Shown here: positions 3,024 to 35,129 of the stretch, one piece after another
Layout of the letters: each line of letters begins with the position of its first letter
Numbering within the stretch: position 1 is the first letter of the stretch
Source: Aporhodopirellula aestuarii
GTDB taxonomy: Bacteria; Planctomycetota; Planctomycetia; Pirellulales; Pirellulaceae
DNA: 64,000 nucleotides
Direction of reading: 5' to 3'
Assembly: GCF_023701485.1 (NCBI RefSeq)
Contig: NZ_JAMQBK010000073.1
Coordinates: 1 to 64,000 of the forward strand
Notes under the pieces: generated by a model
Told to the model about the DNA's origin: nothing
Database searches by the model: none
The model's input: the letters and a program-made list of their open reading frames with translations, nothing else
Translations under genes and position numbers: made by a program

Positions 3024-3263
3024 ATGGCGACGATCCAGGAACGCATCGACGAGCTCGAGGCTCACAAAGACGCTCTCATTCTTGAGATGGCGACGGGCAC
3101 GTTCGCGAAACGGACTCGGCAGCGATTTAAGGAGCTCGAGAACTTCGAGCCGGCCAAGATCGTCGCGGTCATCGATCAACGGATCGCTGAACTGCGTGCC
3201 CAGGCCGATCCGACGTATGGCACTCTCGCCGCGGGACGTCGTCTTGGGAGGCTGCGTCGATGA
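3024..3263 (+). CDS. gpW-like phage head-tail joining protein
   Basis: 79 residues, almost entirely helical and charged, beginning MATIQERIDELEAH and ending GRRLGRLRR. Length, helix-helix layout and position directly before a lambda-type portal gene match the gpW family, which plugs the portal after DNA packaging. I chose ATG 3024; a GTG at 2997 would add nine residues. It overlaps the portal start by 4 nt (ATGA), indicating translational coupling. A terminase gene would normally lie upstream and is missing. The family call rests on size, composition and synteny, so it is moderate. Confidence 0.6.
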   Translation: MATIQERIDELEAHKDALILEMATGTFAKRTRQRFKELENFEPAKIVAVIDQRIAELRAQADPTYGTLAAGRRLGRLRR

Positions 3264-5041
3264 GTGGGATGGGGCCGATGATCGATGCGACGGATGTGCT
3301 CCGGGGGCCGGATCCTCGTACGAAGCAAAAGGAGACGCTTGGGCAGCGTTCTCGCCGGGCACTCGATCGAGTCATCATGACGGTGGCTCCGGTTCACGGT
3401 CAGCGCCGCCTCGCTGCGCGGGAGCGGGCTCGGCTCGAGGCTCAGTCGTCGGAGTTTCTTCGTAAGCGAATCAAGGCGCTCGAGTACAGCACGTTGGGAC
3501 ATCCTTCGGTCGCGCCGAATGAGTCGACGGATAAGAAGTGGATCGGCAATCGGCAGTCCAACGATGATCAGTTGCAGGAATCGCTCGTTGAGATGCAGTT
3601 CCGCTCTCGGGAATTGTATCAGGTCAATCCCCACGCCCACGGTGCCGTTGAGAGCCGAGCGAAGTACATCGTCGGCACCGGTTTGTCGTGCCGGCCGTCG
3701 CTGCCAACGTGCAAGCATCTGAGCGATGACCAGTGCAAGGAGTTTGTGAGCACTTGCAAGCGTGCGTACAAACGGTGGAGTGACCGCGGGGTCGATCGAC
3801 GCCGGCGGTTGAGTCTGCCGGCGATGCAGCGTCTCGCGGCGAAGACGTACTCGATCTACGGGGAGGCGTTCTTCGTCTTCCGGGAGGCCCCGTTCTCGGG
3901 TCCATGCGGGTTAACGGTCGAAGAGATCCATCCGATGCGGGTGGAAACGCCGCCGGAATTTTTTACAGACGACAACGTCCGGATGGGGATCCGGTACGAC
4001 GAGAATGACCAAATCGTCGGGTATTACATTCGCAAAGCGAACGTCAAGTTCCGCCGCGGTGCCGATTCTGACTATGACTTCATGCCTCGATTCAACGAGG
4101 CCGGTCAAGAGCAGATGGTGCACGTGTTCGAACCGTGCCTGCCCGATCGATCTCGAGGGATCCCGTGGCTGTGTGCCGCGTTCTCGTTCATCAAGTTGAT
4201 CGACGATTTCCACGAATCGGAATTAATCGGCAAACAGATCGAAGCGTGCTTCGGTGTCGTCGTCAAACGCGGATCGAGCAACAAGGTCTCGCCGTACACG
4301 ATTCACGACGGTGAGGGGTCATCATCAAGCGGCATGCCTTTCGAGGACCTGTACCCGGCGATGGTGCAGGAGATCGGCGAGAACGATGACATCGTCAAAG
4401 TCGACCCGTCGCGTCCCGGTGGAAACTTTGCTCCGTTCATCGAAGCGTCTCTGCGTGCGGTCTCGGCGGCGCTGGATCATCCGTACGAGTTGATCGCCAA
4501 GAACTTCTTCCGCACCACGTATTCGTCCGGGCGCCTCGCGATGCTGGACGGTCGGTTGTCGTTCGACATCGGCCGGCAACCCCTGACGCATCAATTGCTC
4601 GGACCGATGCATCGCCGGTTCATCGGTTCGTGTTTCTTCCACGGTGTGTTCGATGCCATTTGCGACATGATCCATTACGCCGCATGCCGCCAAGACTTTG
4701 AGGACCACGCCTGGGGCGGGACTCAACAGGGCGTGATCGATCCGCAGAAGGAAACCGGTGCCAACGAGACGGCACTCGAGACGGACCAAACCACGCTCGC
4801 GGATATCCACGCCGACAAGAACGGCGATTGGGAGGACGTGAAGGAACAACGACACCTCGAGCGAGTCCGTGAGATTCATCTCCGCATCGAAGAGGAAGTA
4901 CTCGAGCGGGACCTGCGTCGCCAACACGGGTTGCCGGATCGGATCAAGGATGAGCAGGGCAAGGGCGAAACCGTTCCGGCCGGATCCACCGCCACCGATT
5001 CCAACGCCACCGATGACGACGAAGAGGACGACTACGAATGA
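3260..5041 (+). CDS. Phage portal protein, lambda family
   Basis: 593 residues. The portal forms the dodecameric ring at one capsid vertex through which DNA enters and leaves and to which the tail is attached. Features fitting lambda gpB-like portals are the N-terminal basic region, a conserved block around NPHAHGAVESRAKYIVGTGL, the block GEAFFVFREAP, the block EIHPMRVETP and the block YSSGRLAMLDGRLSFD. The C-terminus is acidic (DDDEEDDYE). It overlaps gpW upstream and the protease gene downstream by 4 nt each, so the three genes form one coupled translation unit. The frame appears intact. Confidence 0.88.
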   Translation: MSGMGPMIDATDVLRGPDPRTKQKETLGQRSRRALDRVIMTVAPVHGQRRLAARERARLEAQSSEFLRKRIKALEYSTLGHPSVAPNESTDKKWIGNRQSNDDQLQESLVEMQFRSRELYQVNPHAHGAVESRAKYIVGTGLSCRPSLPTCKHLSDDQCKEFVSTCKRAYKRWSDRGVDRRRRLSLPAMQRLAAKTYSIYGEAFFVFREAPFSGPCGLTVEEIHPMRVETPPEFFTDDNVRMGIRYDENDQIVGYYIRKANVKFRRGADSDYDFMPRFNEAGQEQMVHVFEPCLPDRSRGIPWLCAAFSFIKLIDDFHESELIGKQIEACFGVVVKRGSSNKVSPYTIHDGEGSSSSGMPFEDLYPAMVQEIGENDDIVKVDPSRPGGNFAPFIEASLRAVSAALDHPYELIAKNFFRTTYSSGRLAMLDGRLSFDIGRQPLTHQLLGPMHRRFIGSCFFHGVFDAICDMIHYAACRQDFEDHAWGGTQQGVIDPQKETGANETALETDQTTLADIHADKNGDWEDVKEQRHLERVREIHLRIEEEVLERDLRRQHGLPDRIKDEQGKGETVPAGSTATDSNATDDDEEDDYE

Positions 5042-28436: not shown

Positions 28437-30671
28437 ATGTCCCGCTACGCGCACAGCCTTCCCTGCAATCCTGATCGTGATTTATGGGAGCCAATCGAAA
28501 ATCATGAACAGGCGGTTGCTGCTCTTTCTGAAGGGTTTCTCAAACGCATTGATTCTGGGCTTGCTGCTTGGGGAGACCTGCTCGGCCGTTGGCATGACGT
28601 TGGCAAGTATAGCGACGAATTTCAAAACTACTTGGCTTGCGCCGGCGATGTTCACGGTTCAGAAGTTTCGGGCAAAGTCGATCATTCGACTGCTGGCGCT
28701 CAGCTCGCCATTGGTAGCCCTTCGCCTTTTGGGAAACTGATTGCTTATGCATTGGCAGGGCATCACACGGGTTTGCCCGATTGGGACGTCGCGACAGGGC
28801 GATCAGGATTGAAGCAAAGGCTCGAAAAACAGGTGCCGCGTTGGCAATCTGAAGCGACGAAGCACCTGGAATCCCTCAGGCTTCCGGCAACAATTCCTGT
28901 GCGACCGCCGGAAGCATATGAGACGTATTGTCGGCATCGTATCGCTTCGTTCCGAATCTGCTGTGTAATTCGTATGATGTTTTCCGCGTTGGTCGACGCT
29001 GACTTCTTGGCTACCGAAGCGTTTATGTCGCCGGAGCAGTCGGGAAATCGCCAGAGCGGTTCGGCGAGCATGGACGATTTGGCAGAAACGCTCGACGGGT
29101 ATCTGAACCGTCTTCGATCTGGCGCTAAGCCGTCGCCGGTCAATCAGATTCGCGATCAAGTCAGCGAAGCGTGTATTGACGCGGCTGAACTTGTCCCCGG
29201 ATTGTTTTCGCTCAACGTCCCCACCGGTGGCGGCAAAACGCTCTCGTCATTGCAATTCGCTCTGCGGCACTCCGTGCGTCACGGGCTGGATGGCGTTATC
29301 GTCGGCATCCCATTCACCAGCATTATCGAACAGAATGCGAAGGTGTATCGAGGTGTTTTCGAATCGCTCGGTGAGGGTGTGGTGCTCGAGCATCACAGCA
29401 ATACCGATCCGGAACAAGAGACCACTCAAAGTCGCCTTCAGTCGGAGAATTGGGACGCACCGGTGGTGATTACCACCAACAATCAGCTCTTTGAATCTTT
29501 GTTTGCGTGCCGCACCTCTCGCTGTCGCAAACTCCACCGGATTGCTCGGCGGGTCATCATCTTAGACGAAGTGCAATCGCTACCTGTCGAATTGTTGACG
29601 CCTACCTTGTTGGCTATTCGCGAATTGGTCGAGTCGTTCGGTTGCACTGTAGTGCTTTGCACAGCCACTCAGCCCGCACTGCAATGGAAAGGCGACTTTG
29701 CAATCGGTTTGCGTGGCATCCGCGACATCATTCCAACGTCTGCCAAACTGCATGACCGCTTGCGTCGGACGACTGTTCGTGCGATCGGCAAACTGAACGA
29801 TGAGGACCTCATTGCTCGGATCGAGGCCGAAAATCAGACCCTTTGCATCGTCAACACTCGGCCTCACGCGAGCAAACTGTTTGCCGCATTGGATGAGTCA
29901 GAAGCGAATTTCCACTTGAGTACCCGCATGTGCGCGGCCCACCGATTGGACGTACTCAATAGCCAGATTCGCCCGCGACTGGACAATGGAACGCCGTGTC
30001 GTGTCATTAGCACTCAGTTGATTGAAGCTGGCGTAGATGTCGACTTTCCGGTCGTGTTCCGCGATGCATGTGGAATTGATTCGTTAACGCAAGCTGCTGG
30101 ACGCTGCAACCGTGAAGGGCGCGCTGCCATTGGCAACGTGTACTATTTCCAGGGCGAGCGACGACCGCCACCGGGGACGCTGCGGATGTCGGCCGATCAT
30201 GGGCTGGAGATCGCTCGTCATTACGACGATTTGCTCAGTCCGGAAGCCATCGAAGCGTATTTTCGCATGCACTATTGGCAACAGAAAGATCGCTGGGATT
30301 TCCGCCAAGTGATGGACGCGATCGGTCGCGATCCAAGCCGAATGGAATTTCAGTTTCGTCAGATTGCCGATCGCTATCGCTTTATTGATGAGGAAGCCGA
30401 AACCCTGTATGTGCCGTGGGAGAAGGGGAAGCAGTTAATCCGCAGCTTAAGCGAATCGGACTATCCACCCGACCGAAAGCTGAGACGTCATTTGCAACGA
30501 TATTCGATCAACCTACGTCGTCATGAATTAGTGCAACTTGATGCCGCCGGCGCGTTGTTGTCGTTTCACGGTTACCACACGCTAACGCAGCGACATTTGT
30601 ACGATGACAAACTTGGCTTGATGCTCTTGAAAGCGGACGGCATTGTACCACCGGAGGACTACATGTGTTGA
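28437..30671 (+). CDS. cas3: Cas3 helicase-nuclease, type I-C
   Basis: 744 residues. The N-terminal HD nuclease domain has His53-Asp54 (RWHDVGKYSDEF) and a further GHH block (ALAGHHTGLPDW). The SF2 helicase domain has Walker A PTGGGKT near residue 262, a DEVQ box (VIILDEVQSLP) near 376, and motif VI QAAGRCNREGR near 551. Cas3 is recruited to Cascade bound to target DNA, and unwinds and degrades it. HD and helicase are fused in one chain, as in type I-C. It is first in the locus and is separated from cas5c by 335 nt that carry a second promoter and a guide-like RNA. Confidence 0.95.
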   Translation: MSRYAHSLPCNPDRDLWEPIENHEQAVAALSEGFLKRIDSGLAAWGDLLGRWHDVGKYSDEFQNYLACAGDVHGSEVSGKVDHSTAGAQLAIGSPSPFGKLIAYALAGHHTGLPDWDVATGRSGLKQRLEKQVPRWQSEATKHLESLRLPATIPVRPPEAYETYCRHRIASFRICCVIRMMFSALVDADFLATEAFMSPEQSGNRQSGSASMDDLAETLDGYLNRLRSGAKPSPVNQIRDQVSEACIDAAELVPGLFSLNVPTGGGKTLSSLQFALRHSVRHGLDGVIVGIPFTSIIEQNAKVYRGVFESLGEGVVLEHHSNTDPEQETTQSRLQSENWDAPVVITTNNQLFESLFACRTSRCRKLHRIARRVIILDEVQSLPVELLTPTLLAIRELVESFGCTVVLCTATQPALQWKGDFAIGLRGIRDIIPTSAKLHDRLRRTTVRAIGKLNDEDLIARIEAENQTLCIVNTRPHASKLFAALDESEANFHLSTRMCAAHRLDVLNSQIRPRLDNGTPCRVISTQLIEAGVDVDFPVVFRDACGIDSLTQAAGRCNREGRAAIGNVYYFQGERRPPPGTLRMSADHGLEIARHYDDLLSPEAIEAYFRMHYWQQKDRWDFRQVMDAIGRDPSRMEFQFRQIADRYRFIDEEAETLYVPWEKGKQLIRSLSESDYPPDRKLRRHLQRYSINLRRHELVQLDAAGALLSFHGYHTLTQRHLYDDKLGLMLLKADGIVPPEDYMC

Positions 30672-30739: not shown

Positions 30740-30825
30740 GCCGCAGCGGCAATGCCGCTGCGGCTATCGATCTTTCCTGACGTACAGAACTAACGCGTTT
30801 CAATCCACGCTGGTGACCCAGCGAC
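30740..30825 (-). ncRNA. Putative Cas-regulating guide RNA (CreR-like): solitary CRISPR repeat, pseudo-spacer and hairpin
   Basis: On the minus strand, 30825-30797 reads as a 29-nt CRISPR-like repeat. It starts GTCGC and ends GCGTGGATTGAAAC, identical to the array repeat in these parts, with a shorter re-paired stem (CGCTGG/CCAGCG). It is followed by about 32 nt of pseudo-spacer (30796-30765) and then a perfect 12-bp hairpin (30764-30740) and TTTCC. The first 11 spacer nt (GCGTTAGTTCT) match 30980-30970, inside the cas5c promoter, directly next to a TTC PAM at 30983-30981. A partial match with seed and PAM allows Cascade binding without cleavage. That is the logic of CreR RNAs known from other CRISPR types. 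No clear promoter for this RNA was found. Confidence 0.75.
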
Positions 30826-30945
30826 GTGGGATTCGGTTGCTCCCAACCAAAGAAAGGAAGCCGGTGCCACCAAAATGTGGAGGTCAGCCGGCTGCATTCT
30901 CGATGATGCGTTTAAGTCTCGCGACAAATTGTTTGGTTACAACCC

Positions 30946-30972
30946 TTGACACTGGGATTAGGTACATATAGA
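30946..30972 (+). promoter_or_regulatory. Promoter of the cas5c-8c-7c-4-1-2 operon
   Basis: A perfect TTGACA -35 at 30946-30951 is followed at 15-17 nt by TATAGA (30967-30972) or the overlapping TAGAAC. It lies 35 nt before the cas5c ATG. The guide-like RNA's 11-nt seed target overlaps the -10 and the expected start site. Confidence 0.65.
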
Positions 30973-30983
30973 ACTAACGCGAA
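30970..30983 (-). promoter_or_regulatory. Seed target and TTC PAM for the guide-like RNA
   Basis: Minus strand 5'-TTC-3' (30983-30981) is followed by GCGTTAGTTCT (30980-30970). The 11 nt equal the first 11 pseudo-spacer positions, and 4 of the following 6 positions also match. TTC is the established PAM of type I-C systems. At the guide locus itself the repeat supplies AAC instead, so the guide gene would not be a target. Confidence 0.75.
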
Positions 30984-31006: not shown

Positions 31007-31678
31007 ATGGATTTATCAAAAAACCGCGTTGCTTTACGAATTTGGGGCATCCTTGCCTGTTTCACCCGGCCCGAGATGAAGGTCGAGCGTGTGTCTTATG
31101 ACGTGATCACACCTTCGGCGGCACGGGGGATACTGGAATCCATCTATTGGAAGCCGCAGATCGTTTGGGTGGTTGATCGCTTGCACGTTCTCAAACCGAT
31201 TCGCTTTACGAACATTCGTCGAAACGAACTCGGCAGCGTTGGGCCGTCCGAACGGTCGCTCAAACCGTACTTAAACGGTTCGAAAACCGAACCGCTGATG
31301 CAAGTCATCGAAGACGATCGGCAACAACGTGCCGCGACACTTTTGCAAGATGTCGAGTATGTGATCGAAGCACACTACGAAGTCCGAAATGGAAACGAGT
31401 CGCCACAAAAGCACTTTGAGATGTTCAAGCGACGTGCATCGAAAGGTCAGTGCTTCCAACAACCCTATCTCGGTTGCCGAGAATTCGTCGCGGATTTTGC
31501 GTGGCACGAAGGCGATAGGGCATCGGTGGATGAATCGTTAATTGGTATACATGATCTGGGGTTCATGCTGCACGACATCGACTTTGATAATCAGATGACA
31601 CCTCGCTTCTTTCGCGCGACCATGGTCGACGGCGTGATTGACGTTCCGCAGATTCAAAGTAACGAGGTGCGTTCATGA
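31007..31678 (+). CDS. cas5c: Cas5c (Cas5d), pre-crRNA-processing Cascade subunit
   Basis: 223 residues. In type I-C there is no Cas6; Cas5c cuts pre-crRNA at the repeat stem base and stays on the 5' handle. The N-terminal RAMP strand is [20 protein letters not shown]. It is followed by the characteristic [20 protein letters not shown] with the Tyr of the active-site region and by [13 protein letters not shown]. The C-terminus has FMLHDIDF and [15 protein letters not shown]. The start ATG follows AGGGG. The stop overlaps the cas8c ATG by 4 nt. Transcribed from the TTGACA promoter just upstream, which contains the putative guide target. Confidence 0.95.
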
Positions 31679-34390: not shown

Positions 34391-34636
34391 TTACGTTGAA
34401 GGCGCCGAGAATATGATCCGCTTTGATTCCGCTGAGTGGCTTTGGATGACTCCTACAGGAAAGCAATCCGACTGTCCGTCGATGATCGTCTCGACGACCG
34501 CTTCGCCGCCAACGATCGACTCGTGTTTGGTAAGGATGGCAAAGTCGCCGCCGACCTGCCCCAGTTCGTATCGTTTCCCGCCACAATGCAACCACAACTC
34601 AACTTCGGCTGATCGAGGAAGGTTCGAGGCGATCAT
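34391..34636 (-). CDS. 81-aa protein on the opposite strand within the cas operon
   Basis: Reads as a compact beta-type protein: VELWLHCGGKRYELGQVGGD, then FAILTKHESIVGGEAVVETI, then CFPVGVIQSHSAESKRIIF. It looks far more protein-like than the plus-strand frame over the same bases. Its ATG (CAT at 34634-34636) shares two bases with the ATG of the divergent kinase-like gene at 34635, so the two starts overlap head to head. It points against the cas operon. Function unknown. I recall similar small proteins in planctomycetes but cannot name a family. Confidence 0.55.
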   Translation of the reverse strand: MIASNLPRSAEVELWLHCGGKRYELGQVGGDFAILTKHESIVGGEAVVETIIDGQSDCFPVGVIQSHSAESKRIIFSAPST

Positions 34637-35129
34637 GGATTTACCCGTTGGTTATGAAGAACAGATCGAAGAATACTGCCGAAAGCATGAGGCCGTGCTG
34701 CGGCGATCACTCGGCACCGGTACCCAGGGTACCGTTTTCACTGCAAAAAAGCCACGTCATCCCAGTGTTTATGCAGTCAAGTTTCATCTCCGTCAAATAG
34801 CTTACGATCGCGAAGTTGGCGTTTACCTCCGCCTGCAAGATCTGGAAGTATCCGAAGTTCGCGGGCATCAAGTCCCGCAATTGCTTGCGTACGACGACGA
34901 TTTGCTTGTCATCGAGATGTCCACAGTCAAACCTCCATTCTGTCTCGATTTCGGAGGTGCCTATTTGGACTGCCCGCCAGACTACACGCCCGAAGTGTGG
35001 CGGGATTGGCGAGAGGAAAAATCGGAGGACTTTGAGGACAATTGGCCTGCCGTGGAAGAGATTCTTGAGGAATTTCGCTGGATGGGGATCCACATCGCCG
35101 ACGTGAATCCAGGCAACATCCGATTTTAA
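34635..35129 (+). CDS. Truncated protein-kinase-like protein inserted between cas7c and cas4
   Basis: 164 residues from the ATG at 34635. A glycine-rich loop SLGTGTQGTVF (25-35), the Lys of YAVKFH (Lys49), a hinge-like DLLVIEMSTVKPPF, and a catalytic-loop-like HIADVNPGN (Asp156, Asn161) match the eukaryotic-like/aminoglycoside kinase fold. The protein ends three residues after the catalytic loop, so the DFG metal-binding motif and the C-lobe are missing. It could be a minimal kinase, a pseudokinase or an antitoxin-like partner. It lies 13 nt before cas4 on the same strand and would be co-transcribed with the cas genes. It is not a known type I-C component. Confidence 0.7.
   Translation: MDLPVGYEEQIEEYCRKHEAVLRRSLGTGTQGTVFTAKKPRHPSVYAVKFHLRQIAYDREVGVYLRLQDLEVSEVRGHQVPQLLAYDDDLLVIEMSTVKPPFCLDFGGAYLDCPPDYTPEVWRDWREEKSEDFEDNWPAVEEILEEFRWMGIHIADVNPGNIRF

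What the first reader, a model, noticed from the sequence alone, without database searches (positions are those of the whole stretch)
30740..30983. CreR-like Cas-regulating guide RNA between cas3 and cas5c, aimed at the type I-C cas promoter
A solitary CRISPR-like repeat on the minus strand (30825-30797) ends in the same 14 nt as the array repeat and is followed by a pseudo-spacer. The first 11 spacer nt, GCGTTAGTTCT, recur perfectly at 30980-30970, over the -10/start region of the cas5c operon promoter (TTGACA at 30946). The three bases next to that target on the same strand are TTC, the established I-C PAM. Beyond the seed only 4 of the next 6 positions match, as expected for binding without cleavage. 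The guide locus itself has AAC instead of a PAM. A hairpin with 12-bp arms closes the unit. Cas-regulating RNAs of this logic are known for some type I and V systems. One in a planctomycete type I-C locus would be new to my knowledge. It would hold cas expression down while Cascade is abundant and release it when crRNA is scarce or an anti-CRISPR acts.
Basis: partly seen in the sequence, partly recalled or inferred. Interest (0 to 1): 0.95.

Follow-up and report, generated by a model that had tools for sequence, protein, structure and literature searches.

The report
Guide RNA restraining its own CRISPR
A lone CRISPR-like repeat beside the cas genes of a planctomycete probably makes a small guide RNA that parks the CRISPR complex on its own promoter and keeps it turned down, and related units occur in other bacteria with the same CRISPR subtype.

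Summary
A structured solitary repeat (30825-30797, minus) is followed by a guide whose first 17 nt match the cas5c promoter at 15 positions, next to TTC. Over guide positions 1-14 this is the only perfect TTC-flanked site in the 9.07 Mb genome; the best of 20,000 shuffles scored 10 against 13. Comparison makes the case: 25 of 149 I-C loci carry a repeat-handle guide matching a nearby TTC-flanked site; 1,220 array spacers gave none. Matches are 19-25 of 25 at positions 1-5, 7-11 and 13-16, only 9 and 8 at the unscored positions 6 and 12 (bases Cascade flips out), and background (24%) beyond 17. Two species of one genus changed guide and target together at positions 2, 7 and 9. One other genus keeps the window's unit; two similarly close relatives lack it. 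Best reading: a CreR/crlRNA-type guide that recruits I-C Cascade, without cleavage, to repress the cas5c-cas8c-cas7 operon. Repression is inferred; no guide promoter was recognised. The kind is known (CreR in I-B, I-E, V-A), so this is a new I-C member. Elsewhere such guides sit by small ORFs resembling repressed toxins, the more novel lead.

The parts
28437..30671 (+). cas3 (HD nuclease and helicase)
   Evidence: NCBIfam cas3_core 109 bits and cas3_HD 86 bits
30739..30765 (-). 12-bp hairpin closing the guide unit, terminator-like
   Evidence: a hairpin of 8 bp or more at guide nt 16-44 in 23 of 26 unit sites; no terminator-like site with a T-run found here
30766..30796 (-). pseudo-spacer (guide), 31 nt before the hairpin
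30797..30825 (-). solitary degenerate CRISPR repeat: hairpin CGCTGG/CCAGCG plus 11-nt handle TGGATTGAAAC
   Evidence: stem kept and loop changed in G485
30909..30945 (.). block upstream of the cas5c promoter conserved in three genera; possible activator site or divergent guide promoter
   Evidence: alignment A2; role inferred
30946..30951 (+). -35 TTGACA of the cas5c operon promoter
   Evidence: sequence; conserved in G485 and G319
30969..30974 (+). -10 TAGAAC (17-nt spacing; 4/6 match)
   Evidence: sequence; TAGAAC in G485, GAGAAC in G319; not picked up by the promoter scan
30964..30980 (-). guide target: positions 1-11, 13, 14, 16, 17 match
30981..30983 (-). PAM TTC
   Evidence: PAM-free search over all loci: 23 of 26 best sites flanked by TTC
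31007..31678 (+). cas5c, first gene of the target operon
   Evidence: TIGR01876, 178 bits
31675..33411 (+). cas8c (csd1)
   Evidence: TIGR01863, 498 bits
33317..34336 (+). cas7 (csd2); listed ORF probably starts too early, family match begins at residue 59
   Evidence: TIGR02589, 398 bits
35143..35823 (+). cas4
   Evidence: TIGR00372
35820..36845 (+). cas1 (type I-C)
   Evidence: TIGR03640
36887..37189 (+). cas2
   Evidence: TIGR01573
37370..40370 (+). CRISPR array, 45 repeats of 33 nt

Best explanation
The unit encodes a single-guide, crRNA-like regulatory RNA (CreR/crlRNA type). Cas5c would cut below the repeat hairpin to leave the TGGATTGAAAC handle; the RNA assembles into I-C Cascade; Cascade finds TTC plus the seed on the minus strand at 30983-30964 and sits over the -35/-10/start region of the cas5c-cas8c-cas7 operon. 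Pairing stops at about 17 nt, so Cas3 is not productively recruited and the result is repression, not cleavage. This is negative feedback on free Cascade: abundant crRNAs compete with the guide, and loss or inhibition of Cascade lifts the brake. Shown: the sequences, their uniqueness, recurrence, co-variation and pairing rule. Inferred: transcription, processing, binding, repression, release.
For: Only perfect TTC-plus-guide site (positions 1-14) in the genome; best of 20,000 shuffles 10, observed 13. Same architecture in 25 of 149 distinct I-C loci (26 of 252 handle sites) against 13 of 37,296 cross-locus comparisons and 0 of 1,220 array spacers from 69 loci against their own upstream region. 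With positions 6 and 12 left unscored, matches are 9/25 and 8/25 there, 19-25/25 at 1-5, 7-11 and 13-16, and 102/425 (24%) at 18-34; every sixth guide nt is flipped out in Class 1 complexes (PMC11127173, passages). Guide and target change together at 2, 7, 9 in G510/G508, all staying paired. PAM-free search: 23 of 26 best sites flanked by TTC. Orthologous unit in G485 with stem kept, loop changed. Cas5c, Cas8c and Cas7 match their families over nearly full length. Only 23 nt separate the PAM from the cas5c start codon (sequence).
Against: No transcript data. No sigma-70-like promoter for the guide and no T-run terminator in the window; that scan also missed the cas5c promoter. The unit is decayed in G319 and missing in G379 although Cas5c is 87% and 85% identical; G468 (74%) and G184 (71%) have none either, and G456 (77%) has one with an unrelated guide that scores only 10. 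In G485 guide position 8 no longer pairs. 124 of 149 loci show no such unit under these criteria. Repeat folds are weak or absent in some units (L072, L097, L119, L143). Several units elsewhere sit by small ORFs, so not every member need regulate cas.
Confidence: 0.85

Rival explanations
1. It is a CreA-type antitoxin: the guide holds down a small toxin (RNA or peptide) encoded between target and repeat, and the effect on cas5c is secondary.
For: In other I-C loci guides of this kind lie beside small ORFs with hydrophobic segments or a conserved LPYT..FD motif. The target-repeat interval of the window is conserved in three genera, and a short minus-strand ORF in it (GTG start, VSRVV...) is shared by the window, G485 and G319.
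Against: The target lies on the cas5c promoter, 23 nt from the start codon. The shared minus ORF does not evolve like a gene: over 21 codons 6 of 9, 9 of 10 and 8 of 9 differing codons are non-synonymous, and its length varies. G319 lost the guide but kept the interval, which an unopposed toxin should not allow.
Confidence: 0.08
2. It is a relic: an orphan array unit or a self-targeting spacer once acquired from the cas promoter and now decaying.
For: The repeat diverges from the array repeat; near relatives lack the unit or have a decayed one.
Against: A decayed acquired spacer would match along its whole length; matching stops at about 17 and is background (24%) at 18-34 in 25 loci, while positions 6 and 12 alone are free within 1-14. 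The window repeat and most others keep a stem with changed sequence. Guide and target co-vary in G510/G508.
Confidence: 0.03
3. The RNA acts mainly as a decoy that ties up Cas5c/Cas7 (Racr-like), with no role for the promoter match.
For: Solitary repeats in viral genomes inhibit Cas proteins, including a type I-C case, RacrIC1 (PMC10651486, passages).
Against: It lies between chromosomal cas genes, has a spacer-length guide, and its seed/PAM match is far beyond chance and recurs.
Confidence: 0.02

Closest known systems
CreR, cas-regulating RNA (Liu et al. 2023, Cell Host Microbe 31:1481; itself not seen, known here through reviews)
   Same: crRNA-like RNA, partial complementarity to the cas promoter, autorepression; described in type I-B, I-E and V-A (PMC13131331, passage).
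   Different: Here subtype I-C, one degenerate repeat closed by a hairpin; function untested.
crlRNAs (Shmakov et al. 2023, NAR 51:8150, gkad495; not held, abstract recalled)
   Same: Standalone repeats in cas loci with spacers partly matching cas promoters, mostly type I (recalled).
   Different: Whether I-C or planctomycete loci were listed could not be checked; that survey may already contain relatives of this unit.
CreTA / CrePA (CreA antitoxin guides)
   Same: Degenerate repeat, pseudo-spacer with partial match, TTC PAM in the haloarchaeal case (PMC9458426, passage), Cascade as repressor.
   Different: The target there is a toxin promoter; in the window it is the cas5c promoter.
Cas9 autoregulation by a natural single-guide RNA (Workman et al. 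2021; content recalled, title seen in a reference list)
   Same: A natural guide with short pairing represses its own effector promoter (recalled).
   Different: Type II, long-form tracrRNA; no shared parts.

Membership tests
CreR / crlRNA (cas-regulating crRNA-like RNA) | Repeat-like element outside the array in a cas locus | tested here: met
   30797-30825; the one non-array copy of the 14-mer in the genome
CreR / crlRNA (cas-regulating crRNA-like RNA) | Pseudo-spacer with partial, seed-centred match to a cas promoter | tested here: met
   15 of 17 nt at the cas5c promoter; unique in genome over positions 1-14
CreR / crlRNA (cas-regulating crRNA-like RNA) | Correct PAM at the target, none at the guide locus | tested here: met
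   TTC versus AAC; 23 of 26 PAM-free best sites are TTC; TTC as I-C PAM: PMC8406640, abstract start in the listing
CreR / crlRNA (cas-regulating crRNA-like RNA) | Guide-target match kept across loci although sequences differ | tested here: met
   25 of 149 loci; co-variation G510/G508
CreR / crlRNA (cas-regulating crRNA-like RNA) | RNA is transcribed, processed and bound by the effector | not testable with these tools
   no expression data; no recognisable guide promoter
CreR / crlRNA (cas-regulating crRNA-like RNA) | Represses cas expression without cleavage | not testable with these tools
   inferred from target position and short pairing
CreTA / CrePA | Target is the promoter of a toxin RNA or protein | tested here: not met
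   target is 23 nt from the cas5c start; the one shared minus-strand ORF drifts mostly by non-synonymous change; an RNA toxin is not formally excluded
Racr | Solitary repeat encoded in a viral genome, not associated with cas genes | tested here: not met
   lies between cas3 and cas5c

The most novel reading that the evidence does not exclude
Type I-C Cascade is widely used as a house repressor, with a shared reading rule (TTC, positions 1-16 minus 6 and 12) written into natural guide/target pairs, and with two outputs: cas operons (as in the window) and undescribed small proteins next to cas5c (hydrophobic-segment peptides in Gammaproteobacteria and Pirellulales, an LPYT..FD family in Planctomycetota) that would be new Cascade-repressed toxins guarding I-C systems.
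Probability: 0.5. Interest if true: 0.78.

Novelty: new member of a known kind. Interest (0 to 1): 0.6.

Why it matters
Cas autorepression by crRNA-like guides has been described for I-B, I-E and V-A. A comparative set in I-C would extend it to another subtype and gives a natural record of which guide bases Cascade needs for stable but non-cleaving binding. It predicts that anti-CRISPRs induce cas genes in these hosts, and points to candidate toxin genes tied to I-C immunity.

Tried and rejected
The first scan of 30 loci found the window pair and one clear relative, because loci matched on the minus strand were not flipped; after re-orienting, more pairs appeared. A flat match count over 1560 non-array handle sites, with no PAM filter, is dominated by chance: 539 sites at >=12/16 versus 379 and 381 in reversed and shuffled controls; its TTC pairs are 22 versus 8 and 11, so I rely. 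Array spacers matching places inside arrays (L046, L113 and others) were set aside. L066 (begins at cas5c) and L073 (partial second copy) were not scanned; L074 and L187 were dropped as duplicates of L041 and L078. Nine of the 44 Cas5c genomes were not fetched; of the phylum search only the 27 new matches that received a locus were scanned; 20 of the 149 loci have less than 1.5 kb upstream. Not all 25 units are independent: L082/L085, L166/L167 and WIN/L163 are related pairs, and L082 shows two copies beside an N run. Sites just under the threshold (L087 and L132 at 9, L047 and L169 at 8, L136 and L188 at 7) are not counted. A minus-strand ORF shared by WIN, G485 and G319 was rejected as coding because most codon changes are non-synonymous. 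G204 (L069) has a solitary repeat but no target found. Rfam gave no match up to E = 1; Pfam gave none up to E = 0.1 for four small ORF products and the 238-aa product. Literature: ten searches; I saw no paper in these listings that describes a type I-C CreR, but Shmakov 2023 is not held and Liu 2023 I neither saw listed nor looked up.

Full report
What is there. The window carries a complete type I-C locus: cas3, cas5c, cas8c, cas7, an unassigned 238-aa gene, cas4, cas1, cas2 and a 45-repeat array. Between cas3 and cas5c, on the minus strand, lies one repeat-like element, GTCGCTGGGTCACCAGCGTGGATTGAAAC. It shares the last 14 nt with the array repeat, a string found 46 times in the genome, 45 of them in the array. 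Its stem differs in sequence from the array stem but still folds. A guide of 31 nt and a 12-bp hairpin follow.

The match. Guide positions 1-11, 13, 14, 16 and 17 match minus 30980-30964, preceded by TTC. The site covers the -10 (TAGAAC, 17 nt from TTGACA), and a protospacer of array-spacer length would reach the -35 (sequence). In 20,000 dinucleotide shuffles of the intergenic region the best score was 10 (one shuffle) against 13 observed. Over guide positions 1-14, with 6 and 12 free, it is the only perfect TTC-flanked site in the genome; 13 further matches carry two mismatches, one of them the guide itself, and the reversed control pattern has 19 such matches.

Relatives. Cas5c searches gave hits in 44 of 396 genomes of the order (E <= 1e-15), 27 of 241 of the family and 40 of 392 of the phylum (E <= 1e-25), the own genome included each time, plus 80 named loci from several phyla, the best 80 of 586 or more. 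I scanned up to 1.5 kb upstream of cas5c in 149 distinct loci for a handle (>=9/11) followed by a guide matching a TTC-flanked site, with positions 6 and 12 left unscored. 26 of 252 handle sites in 25 loci scored 10 or more; in cross-locus comparisons 13 of 37,296 did, some of them probably between related loci (the window guide scores 12 and 15 against G319 and G485). As a second control, 1,220 true array spacers from 69 loci, which carry perfect handles, gave none at 10 or more against their own upstream region; the highest was 9. By my count of the records, 16 of the 25 loci are Planctomycetota, out of 80 Planctomycetota loci scanned; the other nine are six Gammaproteobacteria, Aquabacterium, Desulfonema and a Gastranaerophilales MAG. 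In the same-order set, 6 of 12 loci with a cas3-cas5c gap of at least 250 nt have a unit and 0 of 21 with a shorter gap.

The pairing rule. In the 25 loci, positions 1-5, 7-11 and 13-16 match in 19 to 25 of 25, position 6 in 9, position 12 in 8, position 17 in 14, and positions 18-34 in 102 of 425, which is background. Positions 6 and 12 did not enter the score, so their freedom is not a selection effect; the high values elsewhere partly are. Class 1 complexes flip out every sixth guide nucleotide (PMC11127173, passages). A recent DNA duplication or a decaying acquired spacer would not produce this pattern. Searching without a PAM requirement, 26 handle sites had a best site of score 11 or more: 23 flanked by TTC, two by GTC and one by AAC.

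Close comparisons. G485 (another genus, Cas5c 87% identical) has the orthologous unit: stem identical, loop changed, target conserved, guide position 8 changed (unpaired) and position 15 now paired. G319 (87%) keeps the promoter but its repeat handle and guide have decayed; G379 (85%, same genus as the window) has only 97 nt between the cas3 and cas5c matches and no unit. Of the next, G456 (77%) has a unit with an unrelated guide (score 10), G468 (74%) and G184 (71%) have none. G510 and G508, two genomes of one genus, differ at guide positions 2, 6, 7 and 9; the target changed in step at 2, 7 and 9, while 6 and 12 drifted.

Mechanism. The best-supported account is autorepression by a CreR/crlRNA-type guide: Cas5c processing, Cascade assembly, TTC-dependent binding over the cas5c promoter, pairing too short for cleavage. 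None of these steps was tested. The guide's promoter was not recognised and no terminator with a T-run was found in the window, although in several relatives a T-run follows the hairpin (L043, L059, L095, L134, L164, L168, L196).

What it is not. CreTA/CrePA needs a toxin target; here the PAM lies 23 nt from the cas5c start. A short minus-strand ORF in the target-repeat interval is shared by the window, G485 and G319, but most of its codon differences are non-synonymous (6 of 9, 9 of 10, 8 of 9) and its length varies, so I do not take it as a gene. Elsewhere the picture differs: in Oleiagrimonas (L097) and Sinimarinibacterium (L143) the guide follows a homologous 53-54-aa ORF with a hydrophobic segment and targets a site upstream of it; in Pirellulales loci L168 and L169 (the latter's guide scores only 8) a 53-63-aa ORF with a strongly hydrophobic N-terminal segment is encoded on the guide strand before the repeat; a BLAST-linked family of about 65-78 aa, with LPYT..FD in several members, sits in L043, L051, L113, L134, L164 and L172. 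These resemble CreTA/CrePA arrangements; the four products tested have no Pfam match. Toxicity is a guess. In two loci scanned further upstream, guide and target lie ahead of cas3 instead: L145, target about 35 nt before the cas3 match, and L142, about 565 nt before it.

Standing against the literature. A 2026 review states that CreRs mediate autorepression in I-B, I-E and V-A (PMC13131331, passage); [quoted passage not shown] Shmakov et al. 2023 (title seen in reference lists; abstract recalled) surveyed standalone repeats systematically and is not held, so an I-C entry there cannot be excluded. I therefore call this a new member of a known kind.

Noticed in passing
L097, L143 (also L136), upstream of cas5c: Homologous 50-54-aa ORFs with a hydrophobic segment (19-residue mean hydropathy 1.9-2.0); in L097 and L143 they end just before a repeat-like handle whose guide matches a TTC-flanked site upstream of the ORF. 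Looks like a Cascade-repressed small membrane toxin in I-C. Azotobacter L101, Halomonas L119 and Lysobacteraceae L087 have similar layouts with weaker evidence.
   Followed up: partly
L168 and L169 (Pirellulales), minus strand between repeat and cas5c: Similar-looking 63- and 53-aa ORFs with one strongly hydrophobic N-terminal segment (mean hydropathy 3.1-3.2), encoded on the guide strand between the solitary repeat and cas5c; homology not tested.
   Followed up: partly
L043, L051, L113, L134, L164, L172: A small basic protein family linked by BLAST (LPYT..FD in several members, RKxG/RKxK near the C-terminus); four of six loci have a scored guide unit. No Pfam match for the two members tested.
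   Followed up: partly
window 34413-35129 +: 238-aa product between cas7 and cas4 with no NCBIfam (E <= 0.001) or Pfam (E <= 0.1) match.
   Followed up: partly
L069 (G204), solitary repeat with guide start at 3754 minus in the re-oriented locus: Clear solitary repeat and guide followed by a GC-rich inverted repeat, but no matching target in the locus or the genome (best other genome site has 2 mismatches).
   Followed up: partly
L170 and L172, upstream of cas5c: Guides score 13 against sites flanked by GTC instead of TTC; a possible relaxed PAM in this branch.
   Followed up: no
L142 (Pelosinus propionicus) about 3080-3330; L145 (Verrucomicrobia MAG) about 3560-3900: Guide/TTC-target pairs ahead of cas3 (cas3 matches begin at 3783 and 3789); in L142 a second repeat-like element makes a mini-array.
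   Followed up: partly
window 30909-30945: Block TTAAGTCTCGCGACAA...GTTACAACCC just upstream of TTGACA is largely conserved in three genera, including one that lost the guide; possible activator site.
   Followed up: no
L126 (Gastranaerophilales MAG), between target and cas5c: 28-aa ORF MLKIVELLIRVLLRELIKYIMNDYPFGL, rich in hydrophobic residues, downstream of the guide target.
   Followed up: no
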